Shown: positions 3,301 to 33,300 of the stretch, piece after piece | How positions within the stretch are numbered: position 1 is the first letter of the stretch | Layout: each line of letters begins with the position of its first letter | Assembly (NCBI GenBank): GCA_964017045.1 | Contig: OZ024804.1 | Coordinates: forward strand, 26,948,348 to 27,012,347 | Reading direction: 5' to 3' | From: Omphiscola glabra | Lineage: Eukaryota; Mollusca; Gastropoda; Lymnaeidae | DNA length: 64,000 nucleotides | Position numbers and translations under genes: made by a program | Notes under the pieces: generated by a model | Told to the model about the DNA's origin: nothing | The model's input: only the letters and a program-made list of their open reading frames with translations | The model's database searches: none

Positions 3301-6300
3301 AAATAAATAATTAATTAATACATTTTAAAAAGCAGTTTTAATACTCCACCACCCCGCCACCCTCTTTTAATTAAAAAAAAAAAAAATCTATTCTAGCTAA
3401 ATTTAGTTTTATAAAATCAGCAGTTACATAGTTAATATTTCAACAAATATTTATTTAGCTAGTAAAATCTTTTTTTTTTAATTTATTTTGTGGGGGAGTC
3501 CTTTAAAATGTGTTCATTTATGATTCTTAGTACGATAAGAGAACATAATTCCAAGTGGTACATGGGATATTAATGAAATGATCCATTCAAGGATACATTA
3601 AACTTCTAGAACACTACAACTATTAGCCCAGCCAATCTTACAGGGTAGATGTAATCTTTGGTGTTGAATTTTCCACAGAGGATCTGATGTGGGAGAAGTT
3701 GGCCGATGCTGTGCAAGATAAGGGAGCCGATGCGTAGACTACAATGGCCATCTTCCTGGTGGAACATGCTGTGAAAACAAAGGGTAGGAATTTGAGGTGG
3801 ATAATGGAAAAATTATTATTAAGACAGTGTGTGCTGGTTTGATGACACTGAATGTCTTGGTTTTAATATAACTATACCCTAGTGTTTTGATAAAACCCGA
3901 AAATTTAAAGATACCATGAAGTGCCAATTAAAACTGACTTTTTTTGTCAAGGCAGATCAACAAATAAATTTAAGGAGTTTATGAGTTAAACATCTTTCAC
4001 AGAAAAACATGACTGCAGGTCTTAGTAAAAGTTTTTAAGAAAAATTAATTATCTACTAATGGTGTTTTGGGTTATTATTATTGTTAATAAAAGGATTGTG
4101 TAAAATATCAATACTTTACTTTGATGGTAAACTGTGCAAAATTTAACAAAACTTCCACTGGCTGTTTCCTATGAAAAGAGTGTTACTTTTTCAAACAATA
4201 CGAGTTTTCTTTATAATTTATGAGATGGACAGTACTTGTGACGTAATACTACTAATAATCTGACGGTTAGAAGCACATTTACAGCTTACCTGGCCACTTG
4301 TCTGTCTTCATCTCTGTTGATGTAAACCCTTCGCAGAACAACCAGACTGGTCATTTCATTACCCAGGGCCAATTTTGGTATATGATTGGGGCACAGTAAA
4401 GTCTGTAAATGTTTAGAGAGTTGGCAATTGATTACGGAGATCCCTTTTGATCAAGGGTCGCACCAGTGTGAGGAATCAACATTAACAATTTTTAAAAAAA
4501 TATTATTTTATGTAATGATAGGACTCAGATCAAAGTCTAGGACAGGAACAGTGTATTAAAATACTTTCTGCAGATATCCTCCATGCAGGCTACTGATTAC
4601 ATTATGTGAACTCAAAAAAAGCTGCAGGAGTTATTAATATAGCTTTAAAAAACTGCTTGTTTTACCTTATCTTGGTAGAACATGCAGCCCCTCAGTCTGG
4701 CGCATGGCAGGTGGTAGGCATTGGTGCAGCGTGGCTTGAAGCATGCCAAGGTAGCTCCAGTCTTACGACAAGCCACACATTCACTTGTCGCGCTGCGCTG
4801 GAAGGCTAGGTCTACATTCATGAGAGCTCCATTGAGGGTCTCATAAACATCGTAAGACCAGAGAGCACAGTTGAGGTGAACCCACTTGCTGACATCCATA
4901 TTGAGAAGTCTGCAGAAGATAAAAATGTTGAGATAGAATTCTTCTCGTCTACCATATGATACAAGCCTTAAATGACATTACTTGTTTATTTAATGTTTAC
5001 AAATGTAAGCTGAAATTTTACATGACTAGAAAATAATTACTTTTTTGAAAAGAGAAAAATAATTGGATACATTTTTAAATTACCAGTTAATGCTCTAAAA
5101 AAAATGTTTTATATTTTAGCAGTAAAAAATTCATTCATATTTTGCATTGTTACCTAACAAATAATTTCAAAATACATTTTAATTTTATAACTATGATGCA
5201 TGATGAATGCATAATAATTGACCTGTAAAAAAACTATTCATAAATCAAACTTGGTTTATGATTCCTCCTATGCACCTTTTATTAAAACAAACATTTTTAA
5301 TGAAGCTATCTTAAATTGATTCTCTTACTTAGAAATTGATGTAATTTTGTTTTGTTGAAATGTGTTCCCATGAGTAATGTGCATTTAAACAATAACAATA
5401 AGCTTTTTATTAATTTAATCCAGCCCTCACCTGCTAGGACCATCACTGTCACCATCACCAATATTCTGACACAGCATGCATTTTCTGGTGTCCAAAATAT
5501 CTGGCTTGGGGCGATGGATCATGCCAAGCACTTGCCATAGCTTGTCCAGTTCACACTCTGTCACAGATGGCCGTTTTGTGATGCTGTCGAGCAGATCTTG
5601 ATTGCCTCTTTTCCACCTCAAGCCTCGCCACTTTTTCACGAGAGGCTGTGGACAGTGCAAATAACATTTAAAGACATTTCAAACATGAACAGTTCAGTGC
5701 AATAGAATGTAGGCAGGGGTTGGCAACTTTTCTAGAAACGGGGGGCAGAGTAAATTATTTCTTTTTTTAGTGCCCAGCCTTATTAGTACTATGCCACTAA
5801 TGATTTATTTTGTAAATGTGGAAGGCTTGGATAGTTTAGGCTTGTGGGTCATGGACCAAGCTTTTTAGGTTATTACGTTAGGAATTCTGAAATAAGAAAG
5901 CAGATTTAAAGATATTTTATGTAATTTAATTTTTTTTCAAATACTTTCCACGGATAATTAGACTGAACAGTCATGTCTGCCATTCTTTATAAAACTCAGA
6001 TGACAATGGTGCAAGCAAAAATGATATATATGAAAAAAAATTTCTAACAAAAAATTAACTTGTGTAAAATTAACCTTAGAATAAGCTATGTCTGAAATTT
6101 GACTACTGGATCTCCTGTGGCGTTTTGCTGGCTTGAAAGCTGCAGGACTGGTAGAGGGGAAAGGAGATGTTGGTGTCGTTGACGGTGTTCCAGGACTACC
6201 CGATAGGTCACCTGGGGTGTCAGGCTCAGCTGGTGACAAGGCGGTGTCTGCAGCGACGGCAGCAATGATCTCATCCACGTTGGATGAAACTGTTGCGCTG

Positions 6301-9300
6301 CTAGGCGTCAGCGCCCCAGATGGCATTTCAAGCTTGACGCTGACAATCGGTGGGCTTTGAGAGGTTGAGGGAGTACATTCCAGTTCCTTGAGTCGCAGCT
6401 GAGCCTGGCGCTGCCTAGCTTCTAGTGCTGCAGAGAACTGCATGGAACAGTTCATGGAGCAAAAAATCATCTCCTCATCTCCACAGTCCTGATGGAGGAG
6501 ACAAATTGTTAGCTCATTAAACAATAAACTACATGTTTTGATGTAAAAAAAATTATAATGTAAACAATACAATTATGGACCGATTATGGATATGATTATT
6601 AGATTATAAACTTTTTTTTAAAAAAATCATGAAAATTTGGCTATGTAATTAAAATTAATATTATTTTGTTATCAATAATTTAAAGGCTATGATACAAAAT
6701 ATTGTTTCCCACTTTTTTTAGAACTTGTTAGTATCATGTGGACTGCTGCTAGAAAAATGACTTAAATATTCACAAGCCATGAAGACAAATCTAGTCTTAA
6801 GGCCACTTACCGAGTCTTGTTCTACTAGAATGAAGACAAATCTAGTCTTAAGGCCACTTACCGAGTCTTGTTCTACTAGAATGAAGACAAATCTAGTCTT
6901 AAGGCCACTTACCGAGTCTTGTTCTACTAGAATGAAGACAAATCTAATCTTAAGGCCACTTACCGAGTCTTGTTCTCCTAGAATGAAGACAAATCTAGTC
7001 TTAAGGCCACTTACCGAGTCTTGTTCTACTAGAATGGGGAATTCCCTCTTGTACTTGGCTATACCAGAGCACAAAACAAATACATCACAGTGTTGACAGA
7101 ACCTGGGTCGTGTGGACATCAATGTATGGATATTTACTGCCTCCTCTTTATCTGCAAAGAAAAAAAAAACACAAAAAAAACCCAACATTACAACCTTTTG
7201 AAAATTCACATAAGATGATAAAGCAATAGTAAAAATTAAACAAAAAATTTTTTGAGTGGAAAATTTCAAAATAATCAAGCAATAGCTCATACGTGTGAGG
7301 GACATGCGGAACATCTCAGGTGATGGGCTCCTGGTTATTTCATACGTTGGTGGTACAGCAATTTTTAACAGGTCAGCAATGGCTGATATTACAGCACCAA
7401 TGTCCTGGGCAGCTCCAGTTGACAAGGTCAGTGTGACAGAAACCTGGGGAATTTAATTAATTTTGAATTTCAGGTACACTAATAAATTAAAATATTATAA
7501 ATGCCAACATACATCAAGAACATCATCCTTACATCAAGAACATCATCCTTACATCAAGAACATCATCCTTACATCAAGAACATCATCCTTACATCAAGAA
7601 CATCCTCCTTACATCAAGAACAATTTATAATATTTCAATTACTTCGATTTAAATAATAAACAAATATAAATAAATGGTTTAATTTAGCATCCCTTCAAAG
7701 AAAAAGCTGATTAGGGTTGTTTTTTGCTTACCTTAATAAAAAAAGGATCATCTTAAACACAACAGGACAAAAATGGGAAGATTACCTGTTGGTCTAATGC
7801 TGGATCTAAGAAAGGCTGGGCAAGACCTGAGGTCAAATTTGGCAGATTGACGGTGAGGTCACGACCAGGTTGCTCCATGCCGCCCGATGGGCCAAGACCA
7901 AGTTCAAGGTCATTGCTGTCCTGCTTGATGAGCCCAAACTCTTGTTTGATACTAGCATCAAGGATTTGTTGATCTTTCATTGATGTTAGAGCTGCAAGAG
8001 AAAACATAAGTGAATTGAAATGTTTTTAAATGTAATTCCCCAGATGTATCTTATCTTTTCTATAATATTTAAATCCTTCTTTTTATAACTGTATAATGTG
8101 GTTTTAATAACCAAGAATAGCTGGAAAAAAACTCTATATATGAGGTTAATATGTCAGACCTGTTTACCCGTAAACTCTTAAAATCGTACAACATCATAAT
8201 AAAAACGTTCAATACATTATCTTAATAAAAAACACACACAGTATATATAATATATACACCTCAAAATCGTACATCATACGCCAAAATCATAAGAGTAAAC
8301 AGGTCTGACTTGTAGATATGTGGTCCATTTTAGTCAAATTATTACTCATTACAAATGATCTTTGTGACCCAGAACCTTGGTTTACACCATGGTTTCACAG
8401 CTAACTAATTAAAAAATCTACATTCAAGTAGGTGACTATCTGTGGACATACATGGTTTAACTGCCAGCGGGTGAACCAGGGGTACCACTGGTGAAGTTGT
8501 GTCTTCCAGTTTAACATCATTATTAGCCGCTGGGTCAATAGGTCGCAGGCCGGGGTATTCTGGTTCTTGTTCGTTGAAGCCAAACTCAGGAGAAGAGGAG
8601 GAGACAATTGTGTCGGGTGTCTCCCTTTCTTCTTTCCTGTTTAGGTTGGAGTGACAAGTTTAACTGTTAAGCTTATGATTTTAAAAATGTCAAGCTATCT
8701 CAAATATTATAATTTATAGTGAATGCATCCAAGTATGTGTGTCCACACCTTTAAGTGAAAATTTGAGGACACAAAAAATTAAACTACATGCACAAGGTAT
8801 TTTGGATTCCGTATGTTTAGAGAGAAATGTGAAGAAATGAAGGGAAATTATTTCAATTTTTCTCTTAAATTTTAATTTCAATTTATTTATTTGTTTCAGA
8901 GGGGTGGCCTGACCTACAATGTAAATTATAATTTTAAGTTTGGAAAAATAAAAAAAAAGAATTATATCATTAAAAGCTAACTTTGCTCACAATCACAAAA
9001 ATTGACTTAAAATATGAAGGATTTTTTTAAATTTGTGAACCTATGAAGGTGATCAGCTTTCATAATAAATTTGGTTGAGTAAAATTATTAGTGGGTTGAC
9101 CAGGGATTTAAAAAAAAATTGTCTATTACTTATTTATCAAGACATTATATTACTGTCTGCCAATTTTCAAAGCTTGTATAACATTTCAATGTTTGCTGTT
9201 GAAATTCTTTCTCAAATTAAACTAGTTTATAAATATCTACCTAATAATTTTAATTTTGTACAAACGGTTTGTTAAAATAAAACAGCTACTTTGCAAAAAC

Positions 9301-12300
9301 CTTAATTCATATTGAGAGCCATTAATAAGGCAATTATTACCTCTCCCTCATCATCTGTTCTGATTTAATCTCAATGCGAGGTAATGGAGGTAAGACCAGA
9401 CGAGGACTTGTTCGAGGGCCTGGCCTTCCAGCTTGCAGACCTCCGTCTTGTACCTTCAGTATTTGCATTGGATCTGTTAGGGGAAACAAATATCACTGAA
9501 TCAAACTATTGGTTCTCTCAACAAAAACACACAAAAAAGGTTTTCTTTGTGACTTCATCAATAGATAAGATAATAAATTGTTGCTGTTAGTTCTCATTTT
9601 GACTTGATCATCGATGAGATAATGGACAAAAAAATCCTTTTAGCATACACATTTTTTTAACTAATTTTGAAAAAAAAAAAATTTGCTTGTCAGGGAGTTT
9701 AAGTTTTAAAAAAGCTATAAAAATATCACCACAATGATTCGTGGCTATCGGCATGCTAAGGCTTTGTGTTTTCATAAATAGGTCGCTAGAAATAGCTGTA
9801 GTAATATTTAGCCTAGTGACAACCCACTGTAGACTAGTCTTTCAGTGCTGGTGACGTAATTAATTTGTTCGGCAACAAACCTCCCCCACCCTCATCGGTA
9901 GGGGAAAAATAGTTTTATCGGGGTCTCTTAAAATTGTAGTTCTGACCGGTCTCGCGTAGAATCGTAAAGACATCTCAAAAGCGTACATTGTACGCCAAAA
10001 TCATACAAGTAAACAGTTCTGCTAAACTACTTTTCAACATTAAAAGCTTTTGAAGTTATTTATCAGATATTAGATTTCATGAAACCATCTTGTGCATGAT
10101 ATACTTAAAGTCAAAACATTTTGTCCATTACCTCCTATACCCTGCATCATCCTAAGTTTTGCTTCATTTGCACGCTGTCGTTGGGCAATGATCTCAGCTG
10201 ATGGTACAGTAGGGCGAAGTCCAGGTGGCGGTTGTGGAAACAACAAACTTCCATACATGTCCTCAATGCCATCAATGTACGCACTGCAGAAACGTCCTTT
10301 CAGTGACGATATGCCTGAATGGCATAAAACAAAGTTTTAATCCACTTGGAAAAAACTTATTTTAATATTCAATTTCTTAGTCTATACATTTCCTAAATAG
10401 ATTTTATATTTGTATTTGAAAGCACACACAAAGATAATGAAGAGTGTTCTTAAATCAATTATTACAGTCATGCACATTGCTCTACCCTGTGAGCATCTTC
10501 TGGCCACAGTGGATAAGTTCCTAAGCTGCTGTCAGACTAACGTAGCTGCTGTCAGACCAACATAGCAGCTATTGATGCAAATGAATTCACAAAAGCTGTT
10601 AATCTCTTAGTTACATTTATTTGTTAAAACCCTCAATTTTTCATCATTTTAATAGTATCCCCCAATGTCTTCCAATTTTAGCTATTTTAAAACTGATGTG
10701 AAATACCATGCCACTGACCAGTGAGATTGGGTGCCCCCTTGATGGGTAAAATTGACATTGCTGTGGCTATGATAGGTTCCTGAAGTTGGATGGAGGGCAT
10801 GTTGTGAAGCTGCTGCAGAAATGTTTCCCTCTGGGCGTCCAGCTCTTTTGACTGGTTCTCTTTTAGCTAAATAAAGGATGGTAAATGAGCTCAGAGTCAG
10901 AAGCAAAAACATGAGCAAAGGTTTCATTGCAACATGTTTCATTCACTGAATTTTGCCAGTCATCAGTTTGCCAGTCTTCAGTTTGTCAGTCTACTGTTTG
11001 TCAGTCTACAGTTTGTCAGTCCACAGTTTGCCAGTCTACAGTTTGCCAGTCTACAGTTATTTGGAAAAGCACAGCTCAAATATAAAATCATTAATTCTTT
11101 AACTTTCTACCTCCCCCTCCAAGCTCTTTGATATATTAACTGCCTTCAAAGAAAGCAAAGCTCATTTTCACAATAAAGACATTCATAGATTGTTATAACA
11201 TTGGCAATATAACATATTATTGTCCACCTTGCTTACAAACATATTTAAAATTCACATGGAATTCTTGGTTAAAAAGATAATCTAGAGCAGGCCTGCACAA
11301 CTCAAAATGTAAGGCGAGCCGTAATACTTCATGAAACACTTGTGCAGGCCAAAGGAAAATAGGACAGGACTTGTGCGGGCCAAAACAAAATAGGTCAGGG
11401 GGAAAGCTATTAGGAAAATAATAAGAAAAAGAATATTTTGTTACTTCGCGGGCCACAAAGTGAGTGCTGCTGCCCACAGGCCGTATGATGTGCAGGTCTG
11501 ATCTAGATTTAGAGTTTGAATATACCAAGAAAACCGTGTTAGTTTTGAAAGGACATTAAAAATAAGACAAGTGTCAGGAAGCTGTGGCTACCTTGGCTTT
11601 TTTGCTCCTTTTCCTGGGAATCTCCACACCAATTTCTCCAACAACTTTAGTTTTTCGTTTCTTCTTCTCTGATGGAGCCAGAGTGCTGCCAACAATCTTC
11701 CTCTTATTTTTTCGGGACACCTCATATTCTTGTCTCTTCTGTTCATATTCTTGCCGCCTCATTTCTGCAAAAAGACAAAATAAATTATTCAAATGGGTAT
11801 CTTAACAAAACATAACACAAAGTTGAGGAAAAGCATTTCGAAAGAGGTCCATAAATATAATATAATGTTATAAGGGCAGATTTTAAATGCCCCATTACCA
11901 CAAATATCTGAAAGGAGACAGATTGTTTTTTTAAAAATCAACTCTTCCATGTTTTGCTGAATAATTAAATACCCAAAATCTTCTCCTTTTCCTCTGGTGT
12001 TTTTGCTTCCCATTCTGGTGTAGAGATCTCAGTTTCTTTACACAGAGGCATGGAGTCAATCATTTCGAGTTGACGCTGTTGCTCAGGGGTCAATGAGGGC
12101 AGACTATCTTCACTCTGCTTACCGGTAATTAAAAAAAATAAAAATAGTTTTTAAAACTCTGTGAAACAATATTTGTGCTTCACCGTAAGGATTTAAAAGT
12201 GTTGTTAATATAAAAATATCATTTGATGATTTAAAAAGAAATTAATTGTCCAGTAGTTAACAGGTTTGAAAAAATGAGCTTACATCTGGAGTTGTCAGTT

Positions 12301-15300: not shown

Positions 15301-18300
15301 ATTTGTTAATTATGAGAACATAAAATATTTTATGCCTCAACTTTATGTAAACAGTAGTAATAAACTATTTCAATACTGGTGAATCCACAATGTATGAAGC
15401 TTATGAAATCCTTACCTGTGTAGGGCTGATGTGGAGAGGTATGTAGAGGACTATGATCGGAGGATGGAGACATATCTGACATGAATGGTGATCGCTGCTC
15501 CTGAGATGACTGGTGTGTCGATGTCGGTATAGCTGTGCCGGCTGATGATAAAGCAGACTGTGACACTTGCTGCAACATGTCAAGTGGGGGCCGTGTCATA
15601 CGTGTAGGGTGGTATGACTGATGTGGAGAAAATCCTGTCTGGGACTGTGGCATATATGCATTGTTTTGTTGGTGCATTTGCTGGGACTGTTGGTGCATTT
15701 GCTGAGCATGCTGCATTTGTTGTTCATGCTGCAGTTGCTGTGGGCCTACTTGGGGATGTTGCTGCTGTGGGCCGGCTTGAGGATGTTGAGGATGCTGCTG
15801 TTGTCCAGGTTGAGAATGCTGCTGAGGTCCGGACTGTGCATGCTGCTGAGGTCCAGACTGTGCGTGTTGCTGAGGTCCGGACTGTGCATGCTGCTGAGGA
15901 CCGGTAAGTGAATGCTGCTGTGGCGTACCATGAGAAAGTTGTTGACCCCCGAGAGGATGATGCTGTGGCATTTGCTGCATCTGAGGATGTTGTATCTGAC
16001 CAGGATGTTGCTGAAGTTGTTGTGGCTGCTGCATCTGGGGTCTTTGTTGCTGCTGAACCATGCCACGGCCCATCTGCTGCAGGTGTTGCTGTTGCATTGT
16101 TTGATGCTGTGGAGACATGCCCATCTGACCACCTGGAGTGGAGTAGTACGAACTGCCTGGATAACCCCCATTATCTGTGGATGCTGTAGTGGCTGCAGAC
16201 ATGGAAGATGCTGAAGGAGGTCGTGGAGTCGAGTTACTTCTGCTGTCTTGGCTCCCAGGCCGGGACGGTGGCTCTGAATCTACATCGGGTTCAAAAGAAG
16301 ATTCTCCCGAGGCAACAGCATCAATGGTTGACTGAAGTCTCTCCAAGGCTTGAACATCAGTTGTGTAGGACCGGATCACCTGGTTGGGTAATCATTATTT
16401 TTAGACATTAAATTTAAAATTGTCATGTTAATGAGATTAGTGCAATTCTTGCAAGAACAAGACATTTTTTTTTAAAGCACAAAAACTGCCCTAAAGACCC
16501 ATCTCTTCAAACTGTACTATAAAGACACATTCTCACCCCCCTCTGACTGCAACGTTCGATTCTGCTGGGTGCTGTCCATAGCTAGACAGGGGTGGATAGA
16601 ACTAAGGTGGTGAGGTCAAGCTTTTCACCAATTATTGTTTTTAAATTTATACGTTTATGTAATTGCTAATTGTTATGTAAACGCAGTGAGTCTAGCCCTC
16701 GGCTGAAGTACTGCACTATATAAAACCACCTAATAATAATAATATACAATTAGAATGCCATAATAAAATTAACATTTGAAGTTCTTGAATCAGCATATCT
16801 GTAACTAAAATTTGAAACAATTTAACATTGGACACAATAATAAAATATAAATGTAGCCGTTTTACTAAACTGGAAAAGCCTAATTTTTCACCAAAAAAAG
16901 TTGTTAAAATTGTGTATTAACTTTTTTCTTTAGAACCTCAAATCTTGCCATAGCTAACTAAGTTTTATCAACATTTCTTTCATAAAATGAAATAAAATAT
17001 TCTTTTTCCAACTTTGTAGTTGTTGATTGTGGCAAATTGTGGGTTAGTGCCATAATGATAGAGTTTTGGGAAACTGTTGAGTTTGATGAACAGTAATCAT
17101 TTATTTTTTTTGGACAACAAAATAAATGTGATCTGTTTTCACAAATTGTTTCAAATTATTGTTTGTTTTTTTGTTGTTTTTTTTAATACAGTTAATACTG
17201 TCCTTAAAACATGAACACCCTAAGCTCACTTTTCAAAATACTAATTTGGAGATAAATGTCTGATTATGATTCATCTTAGTTGACATTCTCAGACATTTCA
17301 AAATACTAATTTGGAGATAAAAGTCTGATTATGATTCATCTTAGATGACATTCTCAGACATTTCAAAATTAAAGAAGGTTCAAATAAAAAACGACACAAA
17401 TATTGAAGATTTATTATCATTAAACTAGCATCATTATTATTTATTAAAAAGTTTGAAACATACTGTGGGAATCTTGCATACCCATTATTTTATGTTCTGC
17501 CCTTTCTTTGTTTGTATGCAGGCTGATTATTTTTTCAGGGACTAATCAAAAATACTTTGGTAAATAGAAAATTTAATTTTTTTTTTTATTGACATTTAAA
17601 TTTTTTTTTTTTTTTTTTGAAGTATGTCCAAATTTTGGTAAAACTTGCTTGCCAATGGACATTTCCCAGTTTTTCCACTTTTGGGAAGTTCTTATTTGCT
17701 GTTTGATTTAATTCAAGTAAGTTTAGTAGGGCTAATTAAAATGGATCCAATAAGTATTTTTTTTTTAGAAATATATAATATTTTGAATCTGAATAATTTC
17801 ATTCCCTTCAATTCATGATAATGTCATCCAAGCCATGTTTACAAACCCAAACCATATTACCGACCAATGATATGAAACAGGAACAACCTCAATTCCACTT
17901 CCCTCCCCGATATTAAACATGCTTTTTTCTAAGTGGTCATATCCCATATCTTTGTAATTTACAACTTAACTTTAAAAATTGACCTTACTGTAAAAACAAA
18001 ATGACAAATTTAAAATAAAAATCTTTAAAAACTTCCATCATTTTAAAATTCCACCACATGGACCAACTATCTGAAGATGTCCTCTGCTATAGTGTCATTT
18101 TACTTCACAAAATATTTACCACCTGGCAAGAAAGCAAATTATCAAACATTTTCAATAATGCTTACAGATGAATGAATATCTTACCTTTTTTGTTCCTTCA
18201 CTTGTGTTTTTGCTTGATCCAACATTTATCTTGACAATGTCTGTATCAGGAGACTTTGTGTAAGTCACATTTTTAAACAGATTAGATCCTGGCTTTGAGC

Positions 18301-21300
18301 TGAAAGGTTCTGTAGTTGGTGTAGCAGGCCCTGACGATGGTATGTTAGGTGGCATCGGTGTGGTCACCGCAGGAGATGGCGATGCCGATAATGACTGGGA
18401 TACAGGAGGTGGCGGTGGTGGAGTCTGCTGAGGTGCTGACATGGGTGGGTGTGAAGCAGAAGTGCTTTGATGTGATGATACAGTGGGTGGTTCAGAGTTT
18501 AAGTCCAGAGTTTTGACACTGTAAACAGGTGCCGGTGTGGCAGAGGAAGTGATGGTTGAACCGGATGGACTGTTGATGACAGCAGTTGATGTTGATGAAA
18601 TGTAACTTGTTGACTCACAACGAGAAGTCACCACAGATGCAGTGCGCTTGACTTTCTCTTTGTAAGAAGGTCCTGATATTAGTTCAGCAGTGCCGTCGGA
18701 CGACTTCCTGATCTTCAGCTTGAGATCACCTTCTAGTTTACTTCGGGAAGAAACAGATGAAAAGTCCCCTCGTGGGTTGGAAGGACTCTCACAAAATAGT
18801 TGAGGTTGGGACTGACCATCCATACGTATCCGCAAAGGAGGAATAACAGGCCGTGACTCATTTGATGAACTTCGTGAGACACTTGAAGGAGAAGGACTAT
18901 TGTTGTTAGCTTGTGCATTATTGTCCGAGGTAACTTGTGCTGATTTGGATGATTGAGACGAGTAGTATGATGGTGAAGGGGGAATTGCACTTTGCACTTT
19001 AGGCACTGTAGGTGTGGTGACTGGGGCAGTGATAGCAGCTTGTGGAAGGGATGATGATGATGATGAAGAAGATACAGAAGAACTAAAACTAGGGGCTTGG
19101 GTCTGAGCAGTCGATGAGATGGGCAATACTGATGAGGGCTTGGCAAAAGTTTTTATAACTTCAGAAATGGGAGACGACGATGGTTGACTTGTTGCTGTGG
19201 ACTCGGAAGCACAGTTTACATCTGATGTCTTGGTCTGTTTTATCATAGATTCTGTTCTGCTGTCCCCTGGACCCAATGTTTCGTGTCCTCCTTTTGCATT
19301 TCCACTCCCAGGCTGCACAACTGAGGGAATGACAGATTCTTGTTCTAAAACTGAAGATGATTTTTCAGCTGGTGATTGTTTAGAGCTATTTTCAATGTCT
19401 TTAGCTGGTGTTTGGGTGCTTTGCCCATTTGTTTGTGTTGCTGGCATCGAATGTGCGGGAGGAATGACTGATTGCTCATTTAATGTCGGAGTCGAGGATG
19501 CTAATCCTGACAATGAGAATGCTGATAATGTGTCAGAGGGAAGAATGGGTACGTTGGATGGTTCTGATGTATCTGAGTCGATCCGAGGTTTGAAGTTTGC
19601 AAGAGAAAGAGAGACGACCTCAAGCTGGGATGAGATTTGGGAGTGAATGGGAGAGATCATTGTGACATTTGTGTGGGGTGAGGCCTTCTCTGGGGTGACA
19701 GGGAGTGCAGTACCTTGGTTTGAAGTTGGTAATGAAGTGACAGCTTCACCGGTGTCCATTTTACTTTCGGTTGTCTCAGGTTTATCAGTTCTTTCAATTT
19801 GAGGGTCATTCTTTACTGCAGTATTTATGTTTTGTGCTTCAGCAGATTTGTCTGATTTCATTTGAAAATCTCTACTGCTATCTGAATTGAAATTGCTTGT
19901 TTCAGAAAAAGAGTTATCTAAACTTGCTGAAGTTGAATCTTGCATAGGTTTTTCTGAATTGGCAGCTTTTGATTTTCGTGTTGGTGCTGTTGTGGAATTT
20001 TTATCCTCTTCATCATCTGTTCCACAATGAATACCATCGTCACAAACCTTTTTCTTTGTGGCACTACTGCTTTCTTCTTCATCATCTGTTCCACAATGAA
20101 TGCCATCGTCACAAACCTTTTTCTTTGTGGCACTACTGCTTTCTTCTTCATCATCTGTTCCACAATGAATGCCATCGTCACAAACCTTTTTCTTTGTGGC
20201 ACTACTGCTTTCTTCTTCATCATCTGTTCCACAATGAATACCATCGTCACAAACCTTTTTCTTTGCTTTACTACTTCTCTCTTCCTCATCATCTGTTCCA
20301 CAATGAATACCATCGTCACAAACCTTTTTCTTAGTGGCACTACTGCTTTCTTCCTCATCATCTGTTCCACAATGAATACCATCGTCACAAACATTTTTCT
20401 TTGCTTTACTACTGCTCTCTTCCTCATCATCTGTTCCACAATGAATACCATCGTCACAAACCTTTTTCTTTGCTTTACTACTTCTCTCTTCCTCATCATC
20501 TGTTCCACAATGAATACCATCGTCACAAACCTTTTTCTTTGTGGCACTACTGCTTTCTTCCTCATCATCTGTTCCACAATGGATACCATCGTCACAAACC
20601 TTTTTCTTCTTTGTGGCACTACACCTCTCTTCCTCATCGTCTGTTCCACAATGAATGCCATCGTCACAAACCTTTTTCTTAGTAGCACTACTGCTTTCTT
20701 CCTCATCATCTGTTCCACAATGGATACCATCGTCACAAACCTTTTTCTTAGTAGCACTACTGCTTTCTTCCTCATCATCTGTTCCACAATGAATACCATC
20801 GTCACAAACCTTTTTCTTAGAAGCACTACTGCTTTCTTCCTCATCATCTGTTCCACAATGGATGCCATCGTCACAAACCTTTTTCTTCTTTATGTCACTA
20901 CATCTCTCTTCCTCATCGTCTGTTCCACAATGAATGCCATCGTCACAAACCTTTTTCTTAGAAGCACTACTGCTTTCTTCCTCATCATCTGTTCCACAAT
21001 GAATACCATCGTCACAAACCTTTTTCTTAGTAGCACTACTGCTTTCTTCCTCATCATCTGTTCCACAATGAATACCATCGTCACAAACCTTTTTCTTTGC
21101 TTTACTACTGCTCTCTTCCTCATCATCTGTTCCACAATGGATGCCATCGTAACAAACCTTTTTCTTCTTTACGTCACTATATCTCTCTTCCTCATCGTCT
21201 GTTCCACAATGAATGCCATCGTCACAAACCTTTTTCTTAGAAGCACTACTGCTTTCTTCCTCATCATCTGTTCCACAATGAATACCATCGTCACAAACCT

Positions 21301-24300
21301 TTTTCTTAGTAGCACTACTGCTTTCTTCCTCATCATCTGTTCCACAATGGATACCATCGTCACAAACCTTTTTCTTAGTAGCACTACTGCTTTCTTTCTC
21401 ATCATCTGTTCCACAATGAATACCATCGCCACAAACCTTTTTCTTAGAAGCACTACTGCTTTCTTCCTCATCATCTGTTCCACAATGGATGCCATCGTCA
21501 CAAACCTTTTTCTTCTTTATGTCACTACATCTCTCTTCCTCGTCGTCTGTTCCACAATGAATGCCATCGTCACAAACCTTTTTCTTAGAAGCACTACTGT
21601 TTTCTTCTTCATCATCTGTTCCACAATGAATACCATCGTCACAAACCTTTTTCTTAGTAGCACTACTGCTTTCTTCCTCATCATCTGTTCCACAATGAAT
21701 ACCATCGTCACAAACCTTTTTCTTAGTAGCACTACTGCTTTCTTCCTCATCATCTGTTCCACAGTGAATACCATCGTCACAGGTCTTTTTTGAGCTATCA
21801 CTTTGAATTTCAGAACTGTTCACTTCACCTAAAGGTAACGCTAATTCTAATTTAGTTTCCGGAATGCTGGTGTTTGTTGATGCTGCCGTAGGTTTTTGAG
21901 CACCAGTGTTTTGGCCATGGCTGTTTGCCTCAGCTGGAATGTTCGATGGTGAAGAACTGGATGATGAAGCTGGTGTGCTTTGTGTAGATGAAGTTGCTGC
22001 AGATGTAAATAAATTTGCAGGGGATGCGGTATATAAAGTTGTGCCTAAATTTGCAGCAGCTGCTGCCTGCCCAGCTGATACTTGAGATGTGGCTATATGA
22101 GAAGCTGACGTTGGTGTTTGCGGTAATGAATCTGTGCCAGCTGTTGATGATGTTGGTGGAGCACTTGATGATGCTGAAGGAGTTGCAGATGTTGATATAG
22201 ACATTTTTGTCAGAGATGAAGAAATTGTGCTTGAAGGAAGAGAACCCTGTTGTAGAGCCATTATATGAGGGGGAGGCTGGTATGAGGTGGCTTGAGGTGT
22301 GGGTGGCAGATGAGTCAGGGGAGGTGCTTGATTCACCTGCTGTTGGTGTTGACCAGGAGGCACGGTCTGGTTAGCCTGGGCGCTCAGCGGCATTTGTGAG
22401 TGATGAGTTAAGTGGGGGGGCATACCTGGACCAGATCCGGGCATGCGCTGTTGCATCATAGCATGGGGAGACATGTGCTGGTCAGAGCCTTGCATTCGTG
22501 GTTCAGGGGGCATCCGGGGAGGAAAACCAGGCATGTGTGAATACTGAGGATGACTAGCTCTCAAATGAGGGGGTCGATTAAGAAATGATTGAGGAGGCTG
22601 TGCTACACCAGGTGGAAATCTTTGCCTTTGTGGGTAGGGATGCAGCTGTGGGTACCTAGGAGAACCCATTGCAGTCATCTGCTGGGGGTCCATTGGGTGA
22701 CGCTGACCTTCAGCCATACCCGGAAACTGCTGCTGGTAATGCTGCATTCTGGCCAGATTTTGTAGCTGCTGGCTCTGCTGGAACCGCGGATCGATCGGTC
22801 CACCATGGGGAGGCATATGCAGAGGCATTCGTTGTGAATGTGGAGGGGGGTGTGCGAGAGATGTTTGGCTGCCAGAACTACTCTGAGGTTCACTAGAGGC
22901 AGACCCGGCAGCTAAAGCAGGGACATAACCACCAGATGGTGGGTTCTTACCTTCTCCCTGTAAGTTGCGCTGCTTATCTATGCCCTGTCCACATGAGACT
23001 TCTGGATTTCCACCGGCTTGTGTGGTCATGTGTGAGTCAAGTGTCTGGGCAGAAGGTGCATTAGTCAATGATAATCCCGATGGCACCCCAGATATTGAGC
23101 AGGCCTGAGATTTATCTGGCTCGGGCGGGATAACAGGCTGGGCACGCGCTGGACTACGGCTACGTGGAGATTTACCTCCTCTTGCGCTGCTTGGACTTGA
23201 AGGATTTTGCAGCTCTTTTTGTGAGTTATTGAGGATTTCTAAAATACGTCTTTCTGTTTCTGACTGTGGTCTGGGCAGTTCAGCAGGTTTTGTAGTGGAT
23301 CCTGTGCTGCTCATTGAGCTCATGCTGGATGACTGACTGCTCATCTGACCTAAAATTGTGTAAGAAACAAACACAGTGCCGAGTGATATCTTTGCACTAA
23401 CACAGGTATCTCATTCATCTTATAACCATTTAGATAACTAGAAAATTAATTTTTGACATAAACTCATTCAATCCTGGCCCAGAAATCTAGCACTGAGAAT
23501 CCCCTGAGAATCCCAAGGATTAAACTGCATGCATCATTTTTTGCTTCATTCTTTTGTGATCAAGTAACGCAAAGCAGGTAATTTTACTTCAATAAGGAAA
23601 ATGCAACAAGAATATTTCCAACATAATCCATTTGTGGATACAAAAATGTACAAATATGTAACTTATACCTAGTAGAGCTTGACTGGGAATAGAAGGAGGG
23701 AGAGGTTGCGACTGGGCACTTTCCAATTCATCCGATTTCTTTTTCTTTTTCCTCTTCTTCTTTTCTTTTTGCCCTGTCTGGGTGCCAGAGGGCATGTCCG
23801 ACACTTGTGTTGTGGGCATGTTACTGGGTCCTAATAACAAAAACGTTGATCACAAAAATGAAGCATGACTGCAATATATTTACACAAGCAGTTTAAAAAC
23901 CCAACAAATAAAGTTCTAAATGTTAAATTACAATCAATTGAAAAGGGGTGAGAAAAAAATCGTCTACATCTTTTTAAAGAAGCAGAAGAAACAGCAAGCA
24001 GTATTTAAACCCTTTTATTTTTTAAAAATATACAGTTGTCAATTTTTTTTTTTTTAAATTCAACATTTTTGTGTCTTAATCCCAATCAATTGTGGGCGCT
24101 CAGAAATGTTATCATTATAAACCCCAGCCAAAGGTGAACAACTCCACCCTTTAGGGCAGATAACTTTCACCCTTTACGGCAGGTAACTTTATAGAGAATT
24201 TTTTAAACATATCTATTTAAAAGTATAGTTATATGAAATAAATATGATTTGCATTGGTTGTTTTATATGTTTCATCATATTATTTCCCAATGCTTTTGTT

Positions 24301-27300: not shown

Positions 27301-30300
27301 AGAAGATGCTGGGTATGGTCTTACAATCAGAATACTATTTACCGCCACATACACTTTGATTCCCAAACACATTTTGTGTAGATATTACTTATTCCTATAA
27401 AGCTAACAATTCAGTTTTTGGTTTGTTTTGTTTTTTTAAATTAAAAAAAGTCATCCCCTTTTTTTCTGTTCTTGCTATTTGCAGAGAAGAAATTTCTGTT
27501 ATTAATGTGTTCTCCATCAAAGTGATAAACTAAGAGTTTACATGACAAATCACTCAATCTGCAGCAACAACAGCCTGAGATAATATACCTTTAACCCTTT
27601 TAGAATTAGGAATGTTTAACCATTAGGTTCCCAAAGCTTTGAAAAATTTGCTTCCAATAAGGTGATAACGCTCCAATTCTTACGTTCTTCTAAGTGGTAC
27701 TCTCTCACTGGGGCTTTTTAAGCATTATGATTACAATGAACAATACCACTTATGAATATAAAAGTTATTGCTGAATTGTAACAAAACTTTTTAAAGTTAC
27801 ACATTAGGACTGAGATAAAAATGTGAGCTAATTGTGACCTCACTTAAATGTACTGCAATGTGATGGATGATTCCAGGTAATTCGGGCAGGCACTATGGGA
27901 ACTTAATGGTTAAAACTCAACAAAAGATAACATCTTTATCACCTAGTCATTGAAACAAAACAAAAACAGAAAAAAATCAAACCAAAAAAAAATTAAACAA
28001 TATGATAATCTTAGCAGCAACAAACTCTTTACCAACACCAACAACAACTGATTTGTAGGTACAGGGGCCATCAGACACACGGGGGCCATCAGACACACGG
28101 ACACCAAAAGACAAACCTGTTGTTTGTTTTTGTATTCTTGCATCAGGTGTTGGTGCTGCCTCAGTAGCTTGCGCTGGGCCTCCAGCTGCTTCTGCAGCCC
28201 TGACTGTTCAGTGCCTATCCGTTCTAGTTCTGCAGTGTCCACTGGATTGAGTTCCTGGCCATTTTTCTTGGCCTGATTGGCATTTTAAAAAAAAGAAAAT
28301 TATTAAGAATGCTCCATCCTGCTTTAATCCTAATAATAGATTTTCTTTCTTCCTCTAAAACCTAACCATTTCCAAATCCAGACTTTGAGCATGATTGTTT
28401 GCTAGAATTCCATTTTTTAAGGAAATTAAAAATTTAATTCCATTGTTTTCATATTAATTTATTTTAACTATATGAAATTCATCATACGGCACAGCAGTAT
28501 ATTGCATGATTAAAAGTTGATTGCAACAAGTACTTCATGTTTTAAATTTATGAGTTGAATGACACAGTGATTAATAAGTTTACAGAATATTATGAGGCAC
28601 CTGTTTATTTACCAAAGTGAGAACACAAGATTTTATACCTTTCTGTGACTGCCGTTAACAACTTGCCGCAGCAGGTAATAATTATATTGCTTAAACAAAG
28701 ACACTTGACATATATAATATACTTTCATGAGACTCACCAATCTTTGCCTTGCCTGAATTGTCTTCTTGCTTCGCTTAAGTTTGTTGACCTGTCCCTCAAA
28801 TATCTTGACTTGACTCTCCAGGTAAATAGCCTGCTTGTTAAGCCAGTCTTCGTATTGGGCAGCTTGCCTTTCATACTCAGGACCCATTTCACCTAAATTA
28901 AGACAAGAACATTATTATTTTAACATTCTCTTGTGATCTGGTTGAATTGGGCTCAGCAGTTGACAAGTATTCATGACACCACACCCTTACTTCTGGGATT
29001 TGATTTAATCATATTTTTTTTTACATTCAAGTGCAGTGATAAAGTAAAACAAATATAGGTTCAAACTATAGTTAACCCTTTAACTGTCAAGAACATTTTT
29101 TCTATAGCGTCAAGCCATTTTTGACAATTTCATGTGCTTGTCAAAAATGACAAAAATCTCAAAATGAATTCAAAGACCCTAACAAGTATACATTTGCTGA
29201 AGGTAAATTTGGTATGAAAAGAATTTGTTTTTATATTATGTATGTTGATATTTGTTGTGAGCTGGATTTGTTATGAATGTTTTTGATAGGGCCAGTTGTT
29301 GATCGTGGGAGTGTTTTGTGAGTTGTTGATCATGAGGTCAGAGTTGGTTCGTCGTGTTGAGCTTTCGTGTATGCTTGGTGTTTGTGTGTGAAATGATCGT
29401 TAGTTGAGATTAGTAGAGCCAGGAGTTAATCGAGAGAGTAGTCGAGAGTAAAATCAGTGCCATTGTAGTGATATGTTTGAGCAGAGGACGTTTTCTTGAA
29501 GTGGTAGCTCGTCTGTGTAAATAACTGTTAAAGAACTGTTGTATTTTCATCCTGGAGTTTGTGATTATATCCTGGGATAGTGTTGTAATCCCTAGATCAC
29601 ATGGAGGCTACTGACCGTGCAGTAAACGTAACTAGTGCAAGTTTTATTAAAGTGTAAGAATGAAGATCCTAACATGTGAAGACTTAAGAAGGCTGTATCA
29701 TCTGTGACTCTAGACTAACGAAAGTAGGCCACAACAATACTGACCTTGTCCTTTACAGAGTGAGTAAAATTTAGTACTCAACTCATGAATTCGACCGACC
29801 CTAAATACTCCATAAATTGTTCAAACTCACAAAATCAAGTTTTTTTAGATACTAGAAGCAAAAGTATTTTAAAAATTTCAAGTTATAGTTACTGAAAATA
29901 TATATTGTATTGAAAATTGTAATATTGGTGAATTTTTTTTCATTCTTTACCTTCAAATTTCTGTCATACAAAATGCAAGGGGGAAGAAACAAAATTAGTT
30001 AAAACAAAACATTTTTAATTGAAGTTATTAAATCCATTTTTTTTATTAATTCATACTCCAGAACATACACAAACGTAAATATCTTTGGGGTCAGTCTTTG
30101 GGGTCAGTCTTTGGGGTCAGTCTTTGGGGTCAGTCTTTGGGGTCAGTCTTTAGATCCAATAAGTGTCTGTCTCTGTTCCATTTCCACCCTTTCCCAAACG
30201 AATTTGCCTGTAACAATAAGACTAAGCTTAGGGATAAAATTGTCAAGATCTGCCTCTTATCTTGACATGACCGCTAGAGCTAATACTGTCATTTCTAGCA

Positions 30301-33300
30301 TGTGCAATATCTCTGCAATCTTTGCTTTCATTTTAATAATTCCAATAAAGAAATTATGTGTTAATTTTAAAATCTAGAGGGGCACTCTCCAGCATCAGTC
30401 TTTATGGCGGTCAAAAAATTTGAGAAAATTTCCCACCCGATTAATCACAAAAAAATCCCTGATAAAAGCAATTAAACACACTAATAGAAATGAAGCAAAC
30501 TCATTTATATAGAGTTATACAGTAAATCATTTGCATTTTTAATGACGATTTTGCTAGCGTGACACCACAGGCAAGGGTATAACGGCCGATGATTGACGTT
30601 ATGACAGTTATAGGGTTAATAACAAAGATAAATGTAAAATCTTCTAGTAGTTCAGTGCACTCTTATCAAGTCAGTATCAGGGATTAAACTAAATGTTTCA
30701 GATTTCAAAACACAAGAGCACCAACCTGTTGGTGGACTAACTGGAGTGGGAGGACCAATGGGCATCTGATGTCCCGCTGGAGGTACAGCATTATTTGGAC
30801 TTGGTCCCCTGATCTCCGGCGGGCCCTGGAAAGGCATGGGTGGCCTCTGATTCATTCCAGGGTGCATCATGCGAGGGTTGAATCCTGTATGTGATATGAC
30901 AAAGTCACAATCATCAGCATAATGGGTTTCAGTTTAAAACTTTCCAATTTTTATTTTCAGCGCTTTTCTCCAAGATTGGGGTGGGTTACCTTTAACCAAA
31001 GCCCTTTTCTCCAAGCTTGGTGTGGGTTACCTTTAACCAAAGCACTTTTCTCCAACCTTGGGGTGGGTTACCTTTAACCAAAGCGATTTTCTCCAAGCTT
31101 GGGGTGGGTTACCTTTAACCAACAATCAAACTGACCAGTGGTGCAACGAGGATATGGACACCTGCAGCTTACAGAACAAGACAGAAGTGAACAAACCTTG
31201 TTGAAACTGGATGTTATCAGGTGAGGGATTCCATCCTCCTCCATTGTCCGGTGGGCCAGGTATACGCATACCTGGATGCTCCATCCTCATCTGCATTGCC
31301 ATGTTGTGAGGGGGAGGGCCAACACCTGAGACAGGTGGCATACCTGTGGGCATGCCCTGTTCTCCTCCCACCTCTCTCCTGTGCATCATGGCCTGTTGCT
31401 CTGACTGACGCTTCTGTTCTTCCTTCTCCTTTGCAAAGACAGAAAATTGGGTAAAAACATAACTTTGAAAATGCATATTCCATTTTCTCAACTTTGACAC
31501 AAATAAAACATTTAAAGAGTAATCAGGATAATTAGATTTTTCTTCAGCTGAACACTAAATAATTTCAAAGGTAAGTCTGGAACACATAATGTATTTGAGG
31601 TAATCTGTTAACGATATTTAAATTAGCTATAATCCTACCTGTTCAAGAAGTTCATCCAGCAAGGTGGATGCCTGACCCTGTGGGCCTCCTGATGGGGGGC
31701 CTCCGGGAAATGGTGGTCCCAGCTGACGGGGACCCATGCCCCTCACAGGTTGTGGTGGGTGAGAAAGTCTTGGAGGCTGGCCAGGGAAATGCTGCCGGTT
31801 GATGTGGGACATCTGCTGCATGCCAGGATGCGTAGGGGACTGCGGTGGTGGAGGGCCTCTCATGCCTGAAATTTAAAAAAAAAGTTTATATTGGGCTTGA
31901 GCATTACTGGACGCTAAGTGTAAGACGAATAGGTGAGTACCTTTAAGGACTGGATGACTGCGAGACTTGTGTTCAAAGTATGACATTTGATAAGTAAGGA
32001 TCAAGAGGTTCTGACAGATGATGACATCAAAATAAGGGTAGGAAAGGCACGGGCAGCCTTCCAACAGCTCAAGAATGTCTGGGCCTCCAAACACCTAAAT
32101 ACCAAACTGAAGATCAGAACCTTCAGCACCATGGTGAAACCGGTTCTACTGTATGGTGCAGAAACATGGAGAACCACTGCTGGGAATATGAAGAGAATCC
32201 AGTCCTTCATCAACAACTGCTTAAGAAGGATTCTCGGGATTCACTGGCCCGACAGAATCAGCAACCAGAAACTGTGGCAGCGGACAAAGCAAGAACCGGT
32301 AGAACAAGAGATCCTCCAGAGAAGATGGAGATGGATTGGCCATTCGCTCAGGAAACCTGCCTCCAGCATAACTAGACAAGCCTTGAATTGGAACCCTCAA
32401 GGAAAACGGAAAAGAGGCAGGCCTAGGAACACTTGGCGCCGTGAAGTGGAGGCGGATACCAAGAAACTTGGCCACACTTGGGGGAGGCTGGAGAGATTGG
32501 CTCAGGAAGGTGATGCCTGGAGGGCTCTTGTAGGCGGCCTATGTCCTAAACACAAACGTCGATGAAGATCGGCTGCTGTTCCTCGAGGACGAAAAAGGCG
32601 AAAGAGAAGAAGAGAGAAGTGTAAGACAAATAGGTGAGTACCTTTAAGGACTGGATGACTATGAGACTTGTATTTAAAGTATGACATTTCATAAGTAAGG
32701 ATCAAGAGGTTTTCAAATCACCTCTGGGCGGCATAGCTTGATACATGGGATGTGGACGGCCATCTTGCATAGCCATAGGTTGTGACATGCGGGGCCCGAG
32801 TCCTTCCATTCCCTCTATACCCCCTTCTCCAGGACGAGAAAACCTGGTAGGCTGTCCATCTTGAGGCCTAGAGAAAAAAATTATAATTAAACATAAGTTT
32901 AGGACAAGACAAAGCTGAAGAAATATGTATTTACTGAAAACAGAACACACAACATTTTCATTCATAAGAAGCTTACATAGTTGGGTATAGGACCTGACAT
33001 AATCAGTATATCATATAATTGGGTGAAGGTCCTCTCACTGATGTCACAAAAACTGGATATGACATAAAGGATAAGTAGAACATTACTCTCCTTCATAGAA
33101 TTAAAACATTTTGACACGTGCCTCACCGGATGTAATAAATTTTTGTCAAAAGGACATAACAATTTTGTTTAAATTTATGTCATGAAATAACTGTACCTTA
33201 TGCCATGGGGCTGTCCATACATGGGGGGGCCTCTGGGACCTCCAGGGTGGCCCATCTGATTAAAGCCCCCTGGACCCCTTGGTACCATGCCCCCAGTTGG

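What the first reader, a model, noticed from the sequence alone, without database searches (positions are those of the whole stretch)
20001..21786. 26-copy [14 protein letters not shown] array inside a KMT2C/D protein
A 66/69-bp coding minisatellite adds about 595 residues to the central region of a deeply conserved chromatin enzyme. Each unit has two cysteines five residues apart (C-DDGIH-C) with Asp, His and Glu close by, a Ser-rich spacer and a lysine cluster. A regular acidic/basic array with potential metal ligands (C, D, H, C) is unusual. The cysteine pair and DGIH are almost invariant while the spacer varies, which suggests constraint on the core. I know of no such repeat in vertebrate KMT2C/D. 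Function is unknown: metal binding, phase separation or phospho-regulation are guesses.
Basis: partly seen in the sequence, partly recalled or inferred. Interest (0 to 1): 0.88.

Follow-up and report, generated by a model that had tools for sequence, protein, structure and literature searches.

The report
Conserved cysteine-pair array in snail KMT2C
A snail gene for a major histone-modifying enzyme carries 26 copies of a short cysteine-paired motif, and the same motif recurs in that enzyme in other molluscs and a ribbon worm with different spacers and copy numbers, so its core looks selected although its function is unknown.

Summary
The array is real: 26 in-frame units at 19979-21781, minus strand, in one exon of a KMT2C/D gene that follows Physella acuta KMT2C in order. 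Copies differ mostly silently in the core (pN/pS 0.02; 7 synonymous, 3 non-synonymous variants) but freely in the spacer (0.56; 2 and 12). It is not peculiar to this snail: of 11 spiralian KMT2C/D proteins retrieved, 8 carry C-x-D-G-x-H-C, Patella and Solemya a variant, the annelid Owenia none. Copy number runs from 1 to 48, spacers differ widely, and both cysteines persist in 273 of 281 units. All ten homologous arrays lie between the same two conserved blocks; that interval is 23% glutamine in the one mammalian KMT2D mapped and is probably the condensate-linked region. None of 140 non-spiralian proteins retrieved has the strict motif; two crinoids have a non-collinear look-alike. The charge pattern is not shared, so it is unlikely to be the common function. 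Best reading: a multivalent thiol (metal or redox) sticker in KMT2C's disordered hub; a docking motif is the main rival. No chemistry was tested, and Solemya's loss of Asp and His argues against a strict four-ligand metal site.

The parts
19979..21781 (-). 26-unit array, consensus [23 protein letters not shown] (21 x 69 bp, 4 x 72 bp, last 66 bp); TRF also reports a 279-bp higher-order period
18185..23349 (-). single KMT2C/D exon that carries the array, 5,165 bp, acceptor and donor consensus at its ends
   Evidence: same frame matches Physella KMT2C on both sides of the array
28117..28890 (-). two exon matches of conserved block U (Physella residues 2881-2983), the upstream boundary of the interval that holds the array
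10136..12114 (-). exon matches around conserved block D (Physella residues about 5526-5738), the downstream boundary of that interval
15330..16391 (-). Q/P-rich ORF with a 24/48-bp repeat in the same interval
4645..4977 (-). ORF with the extended PHD finger (zf-HC5HC2H_2), 91% identical to Physella KMT2C over the 75% matched

Best explanation
Shown: this is a gastropod KMT2C/D gene close to that of Physella, with an in-frame array whose core is under purifying selection, and the same core recurs, with lineage-specific copy number and spacers, in the same interval of KMT2C/D in other molluscs and a nemertean. Inferred: the array is a multivalent thiol module. Each unit is a disordered 7-9 residue loop (C-x-D-G-x-H-C-G-T) whose two cysteines, usually helped by Asp and His, bind a soft metal such as Zn(II) or Cu(I), within a unit or across two units, or pair oxidatively. 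Tens of copies would make reversible cross-links in the KMT2C interval that corresponds to the glutamine-rich, probably condensate-linked interval of vertebrate KMT2D, tying assembly of the enhancer H3K4-methylation complex to nuclear metal or redox state. Minisatellite slippage changes copy number and spacer; selection holds the core.
For: Core pN/pS 0.02 against 0.56 in the spacer, units 1-25; distinct variants 7 synonymous to 3 non-synonymous in the core (P = 0.0014 at kappa 2) against 2 to 12 in the spacer, Fisher P = 0.010. Variable core sites by codon position 2, 1, 7 of 14 each, spacer 3, 4, 4 of 9 each; the five other frames of the core give 1-4 synonymous to 5-8 non-synonymous. 281 units in 11 species: both Cys in 273; deviations from each species' own consensus are 32 and 36 at positions 2 and 5 and 3-10 at the other seven, so the steady positions are Cys, Asp, Gly, His, Cys, Gly, Thr, of which Cys, Asp, His and Cys could bind metal. 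Stretches of 2,699 residues flanking the arrays hold 0-15 Cys in nine species, for example 0 in Littorina against 42 in its 438-residue array. Ten of 10 homologous arrays lie between blocks U and D. The interval is 23% Gln in pika KMT2D, and a review states that MLL4 phase separation depends on its disordered region and that Gln4092Ter impairs it (PMC10423695, passages read).
Against: No metal, redox or condensate measurement was possible. Solemya keeps 48 copies with the Cys pair but mostly Gln or Arg, Pro and Gln for Asp, Gly and His; Patella has one copy with Gly for His, so Asp and His are dispensable at least there. His and Cys are adjacent, awkward for one mononuclear site (general knowledge). 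AlphaFold2 on four units gave mean pLDDT 37.2 and no secondary structure, without metal. No Pfam family passes its cut-off (best row for this array DUF5648, 22.2 bits against 25) and no PDB chain matches at E up to 10. The selection test rests on 24 distinct variants and units are not independent. The link to the vertebrate condensate region rests on one mapped mammalian KMT2D and on human numbering being close to pika's.
Confidence: 0.42

Rival explanations
1. Docking array: C-x-D-G-x-H-C-G-T is a short linear motif read by a partner protein; copy number sets avidity, as with the heptads of the RNA polymerase II tail.
For: Short steady core with free spacers and species-specific copy number; low-confidence, unstructured prediction; one other genomic match to the DNA pattern besides the 26 in the array.
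Against: Position 5, the only hydrophobic candidate, is I, K, G, Q, L, N, F, H or V across units, so there is no fixed hydrophobic anchor; the steady residues are mostly Cys and Gly.
Confidence: 0.3
2. Phospho-regulated array: the Thr after the second Cys is the functional site, CK2-like (TDDE) in gastropods and proline-directed (TPP) in bivalves, with Glu in its place in the nemertean.
For: Thr at position 9 in 233 of 281 units and Glu or Asp in 47.
Against: Does not explain why both cysteines are the most constant residues; the kinase class would have switched between classes of mollusc. The kinase consensus sequences are recalled, not tested.
Confidence: 0.1
3. Neutral coding minisatellite: slippage in a tolerant disordered region, with recent homogenisation making the core look conserved.
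For: The window has many minisatellites (34 TRF rows, some overlapping); this snail and Physella share none of their 11 and 7 spacer kinds, so turnover is fast.
Against: Silent variation in the core is plentiful while amino-acid change is rare; the core consensus is identical in Physella although the 150-residue flanks are 44% and 35% identical, and it recurs in bivalves and a nemertean.
Confidence: 0.06
4. The core is conserved at DNA level (recombination or slippage signal), not as protein.
For: Tandem turnover clearly occurs.
Against: Seven of ten core variants are silent third-position changes. DNA of the homologues was not seen.
Confidence: 0.02

Closest known systems
Vertebrate KMT2D (MLL4) glutamine-rich disordered interval
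   Same: Same gene family and same interval between blocks U and D; low complexity; the MLL4 disordered region is linked to condensates in print (PMC10423695, passages).
   Different: No cysteine pairs: pika KMT2D interval 0.2% Cys and 23% Gln. Only one KMT2D was mapped.
Multi-domain metallothioneins of the land snail Alinda biplicata
   Same: Enlarged cysteine-rich metal proteins with several repeated domains in a snail (abstract of PMC7084494 read).
   Different: Those are dedicated metal-handling proteins with dense cysteines; here two cysteines per 12-27 residues inside a chromatin enzyme; no metallothionein model above cut-off.
RNA polymerase II C-terminal heptad array (recalled)
   Same: Short disordered repeats with a fixed core and variable number inside a core nuclear enzyme.
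   Different: No cysteine chemistry; no sequence relation claimed.
LDL-receptor class A modules (recalled) and granulin (sub-threshold row for the Pecten piece)
   Same: Superficial C-DG-C and acidic resemblance.
   Different: Those are multi-cysteine modules of oxidising compartments (recalled); not matched above cut-off.

Membership tests
KMT2C/D histone H3K4 methyltransferase | C-terminal extended PHD finger | tested here: met
   PDB KMT2D construct 4.5e-27; Pfam zf-HC5HC2H_2 above cut-off; 91% to Physella KMT2C
KMT2C/D histone H3K4 methyltransferase | SET end and order of parts along the whole protein | tested here: met
   Physella KMT2C matched piecewise in order from residue 2 to 6707 over 79 kb, gaps between; the last pieces, SET included, lie before the window start. 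A FYRC domain search of the genome did not complete
KMT2C/D histone H3K4 methyltransferase | H3K4 methylation activity | not testable with these tools
   no assay
Metallothionein | match to a Pfam metallothionein model | tested here: not met
   only a sub-threshold row for the Lineus piece, 10.5 bits against 27; none for the window array
Metallothionein | metal-thiolate binding | not testable with these tools
   no assay
Known zinc-finger family | match to a curated zinc-finger model over the array | tested here: not met
   none above cut-off; a sub-threshold row zf_VAL1_N for the Pecten piece, 16 bits against 27; no PDB chain at E up to 10
Spiralian KMT2C Cys-pair array (group proposed here) | two cysteines five residues apart, in the interval between blocks U and D of KMT2C/D | tested here: met
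   26 of 26 units; 10 of 10 homologous arrays or single copies in the interval; exon order in the window agrees

The most novel reading that the evidence does not exclude
Spiralian KMT2C/D is a metal- or redox-gated chromatin enzyme: an ancient CxDGxHCGT loop, already present before molluscs and nemerteans split, is amplified lineage by lineage into a tunable thiol cross-linker in the condensate-forming interval, so that enhancer methylation responds to nuclear zinc, copper or oxidant, with array length as a fast-evolving dial.
Probability: 0.25. Interest if true: 0.88.

Novelty: new variant of a known kind. Interest (0 to 1): 0.74.

Why it matters
A deeply conserved enhancer enzyme seems to have acquired, in one large branch of animals, a conserved cysteine-pair motif that has been repeatedly multiplied while what surrounds it was rewritten. 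Eleven species supply the same core with different spacers, copy number and charge, a natural experiment on what a disordered region needs. It makes directly testable whether a chromatin regulator can be controlled through thiol or metal chemistry, and offers a fast-evolving length variable in a developmental regulator.

Tried and rejected
Charge pattern as the shared function: net charge per 100 residues is -15.7 here, -18.5 Physella, -19.7 Littorina, -36.6 Haliotis (41 residues), -42.9 Patella (14 residues), -21.1 Lineus, but -10.0 Mya, -9.1 Argopecten, -8.4 Pecten, -1.1 Dreissena and +1.4 Solemya. An acidic array is therefore common outside bivalves, but not universal; the lysine cluster is a gastropod feature.

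Structure prediction gave mean pLDDT 37.2, uninformative beyond lack of predicted structure; no fold search was run on it and the second prediction job was not used. A second similar array in the genome: an 18-bp repeat on C17 reading CGDGIP in one frame (L051) is open in several frames on both strands and looks like an ordinary minisatellite. The one other CxDGxHCGT DNA match, on C8, shows no evident long ORF context. Low-complexity blastp for synteny was noise and was replaced by composition-corrected blastp. Papers: no paper in the held library carries the motif strings searched; searches of KMT2D with mollusc and tandem repeat, KMT2C with spiralian, trithorax-related with lophotrochozoan and a looser one (58 papers, 10 listed) showed no such repeat in the listings seen; of these only PMC12153100 (passages) and PMC7084494 (abstract) were opened. 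Searches were background searches; from them only PMC10423695 was used (passages). Papers not held were not seen.

Limits: one search listed only the best 120 of 1006 proteins, so more spiralian homologues may be among those not listed; the array-word search added only Dreissena. The 151 proteins include several isoforms and are mostly vertebrate. Homologue proteins are gene predictions; no DNA of theirs and no RNA of this species was seen. Unit 26 was left out of the selection test. Unit counts depend on the rule used (at least 5 of 9 matches to the species consensus; one search's pattern gives slightly lower counts in five species: Littorina, Argopecten, Mya, Dreissena, Solemya by one, and Lineus by one).
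Full report
Observation. The minus strand of 19979-21781 reads as 26 head-to-tail units with consensus [23 protein letters not shown]: 21 of 69 bp, four of 72 bp with one extra Lys, and a last unit of 66 bp, [22 protein letters not shown]. TRF also reports a 279-bp higher-order period. The array lies in one exon, 18185-23349, with consensus splice sites at both ends and no GTRAG inside the array.

The gene. Physella acuta KMT2C (P0001, 6,707 aa) matches piecewise and in order, on the same strand, from residue 2 at coordinate 77834 (beyond the window end) to residue 6707 at -1283 (before its start); some stretches find no match and PHD fingers cross-match (neighbouring DNA). The ePHD ORF at 4645-4977 matches a PDB KMT2D construct at 4.5e-27 and Pfam zf-HC5HC2H_2 above cut-off. 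So this is KMT2C/D of a gastropod near Physella, a hygrophilan (taxonomy; kinship inferred).

Uniqueness. In the 744.8-Mb genome the repeat DNA was found only at this locus (that search gives lower bounds). The degenerate pattern for CxDGxHCGT has 27 matches, 26 in the array; its reversed control has none.

Selection within the array. Among units 1-25 the 14-codon core has 7 synonymous and 3 non-synonymous distinct variants, where 78% non-synonymous is expected at kappa 2 (P = 0.0014; 0.0004 at kappa 1, 0.004 at kappa 4). The nine spacer codons have 2 and 12, no sign of constraint. Pairwise pN/pS is 0.02 for the core and 0.56 for the spacer; Fisher P for core against spacer 0.010. The three core amino-acid changes are singletons; five of the seven silent ones are shared by four to nine units, two are singletons. 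The five other frames of the core give 1-4 synonymous and 5-8 non-synonymous variants (the closest, one antisense frame, 4 and 5); variable core sites fall 2, 1, 7 on codon positions 1-3 of 14 each, spacer sites 3, 4, 4 of 9 each. Units are not independent, so P values are guides.

Homologues. A search with the ePHD (37 proteins) and one with the C-terminal 686 residues of Haliotis KMT2C (best 120 of 1006 listed) gave 150 distinct proteins; an array search added Dreissena, 151 in all. Strict C.DG.HC occurs in 8 of 151: Physella, Littorina, Haliotis, Pecten, Argopecten, Mya, Dreissena and the nemertean Lineus. Patella has one CIDGHGCGTDDE; Solemya has 48 units of CTQPGQCNTPPP type. Of 11 retrieved spiralian proteins only the annelid Owenia has none. 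Three bird proteins have three C-x5-C sites near residue 145, far from this interval.

Unit anatomy. By a rule that favours no single position (at least 5 of 9 matches to the species' own consensus) there are 281 units in 11 species: this snail 26, Physella 20, Littorina 21, Haliotis 2, Patella 1, Pecten 31, Argopecten 30, Mya 31, Dreissena 24, Solemya 48, Lineus 47. Both Cys in 273. Deviations from own consensus at positions 1-9: 4, 32, 10, 7, 36, 3, 4, 3, 3; the ten at position 3 are all in Solemya. Main repeat periods run from 12 to 27 residues. Spacers: acidic, Ser and Lys here and in Physella, AENPTKK in Littorina, PPPSEK or PPPENQQG in scallops, PPPQQE in Dreissena, ENENQE in Lineus. This snail and Physella share no spacer kind (11 and 7 kinds), the core consensus is the same, and the 150-residue flanks are 44% and 35% identical. 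Spacers turn over quickly; the core stays.

Place. Block U (Haliotis 3271-3377, also in vertebrates) and block D (Haliotis 5110-5244) were found in ten of ten array-bearing homologues and the array lies between them in all ten; D is weak in Mya and Dreissena, E about 1e-4. In the window U-matching exons are at 28117-28890 and D-matching ones at 10136-12114. The U-D interval is 556-1,099 residues in the seven array-free species where both blocks were found and 1,494-2,834 in the ten others. It is 23% Gln in pika KMT2D, 12% in shark and hamster KMT2C, 19% in the crinoid Antedon. Human residue 4092 would fall inside if human numbering is close to pika's (inference). A review reports that MLL4 phase separation depends on its disordered region and that Gln4092Ter impairs it (PMC10423695, passages). 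The 2,000 residues upstream and 700 downstream of the arrays hold 0-15 Cys in nine species; the seven large arrays among them hold 42-96.

Mechanism. The steady positions are Cys, Asp, Gly, His, Cys, Gly, Thr; positions 2 and 5 accept many residues. A ligand loop would look like that, and it speaks less for a docking peptide, which usually keeps a hydrophobic anchor. The charge pattern is not shared by all. Solemya is the strongest evidence against a strict four-ligand site: Asp, Gly and His are gone from its units but both Cys are kept in 48 of 48. The safest common denominator is a thiol pair. I commit to a multivalent thiol sticker, metal or redox, in the KMT2C hub interval at 0.42, with a docking array at 0.30. 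Everything about chemistry and condensates is inference.

Origin. CTDGKHCG is found in Lineus and in the first Mya unit, in the same interval, so a common origin before the mollusc-nemertean split seems likelier than convergence; the one annelid seen lacks it. The crinoids Antedon and Anneissia have single CDGIHGC and CCGxGNC motifs; in Antedon these lie upstream of block U, so they are not collinear with the arrays. Whether they are related is open.

Novelty. No Pfam model passes its cut-off (sub-threshold rows: DUF5648 for this array, zf_VAL1_N and granulin for the Pecten piece, a metallothionein model for the Lineus piece), no PDB chain matches, and no held paper carries the strings searched. 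It is a new, lineage-specific module in a known enzyme.

Noticed in passing
P0026 residues 2246-2360; P0029 residues 2289-2402: Two crinoid KMT2C proteins carry single CDGIHGC(PGDE or PGDK) and CCGxGNCSP motifs; in Antedon they lie upstream of block U, unlike the spiralian arrays.
   Followed up: partly
P0039 residues 4166-4820: Solemya velum has 48 Cys-pair units in which Asp, Gly and His of the core are replaced (CTQPGQCNTPPP): a natural variant test of the metal-ligand idea.
   Followed up: partly
window 31984-32565 and 55944-57404, strand +: Reverse-transcriptase-related fragments (DUF6451 above cut-off, RVT_1 below) on the strand opposite to the gene, apparently in introns.
   Followed up: no
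window 2666-2961, 6779-7036, 36979-37349, 57846-58026: Other minisatellites (13, 51, 41 and 32 bp) within the KMT2C locus, apparently intronic.
   Followed up: no
L051 2503-3144 (G000:C17): An 18-bp repeat reading CGDGIP in one frame; open in several frames on both strands, so probably not coding.
   Followed up: partly
P0001 residues about 4887-4987; window 15330-16391: A very Gln-rich stretch (63 Q in 100 residues in Physella) in the same interval as the array, with a Q/P-rich repeat ORF at the corresponding place in the window.
   Followed up: no
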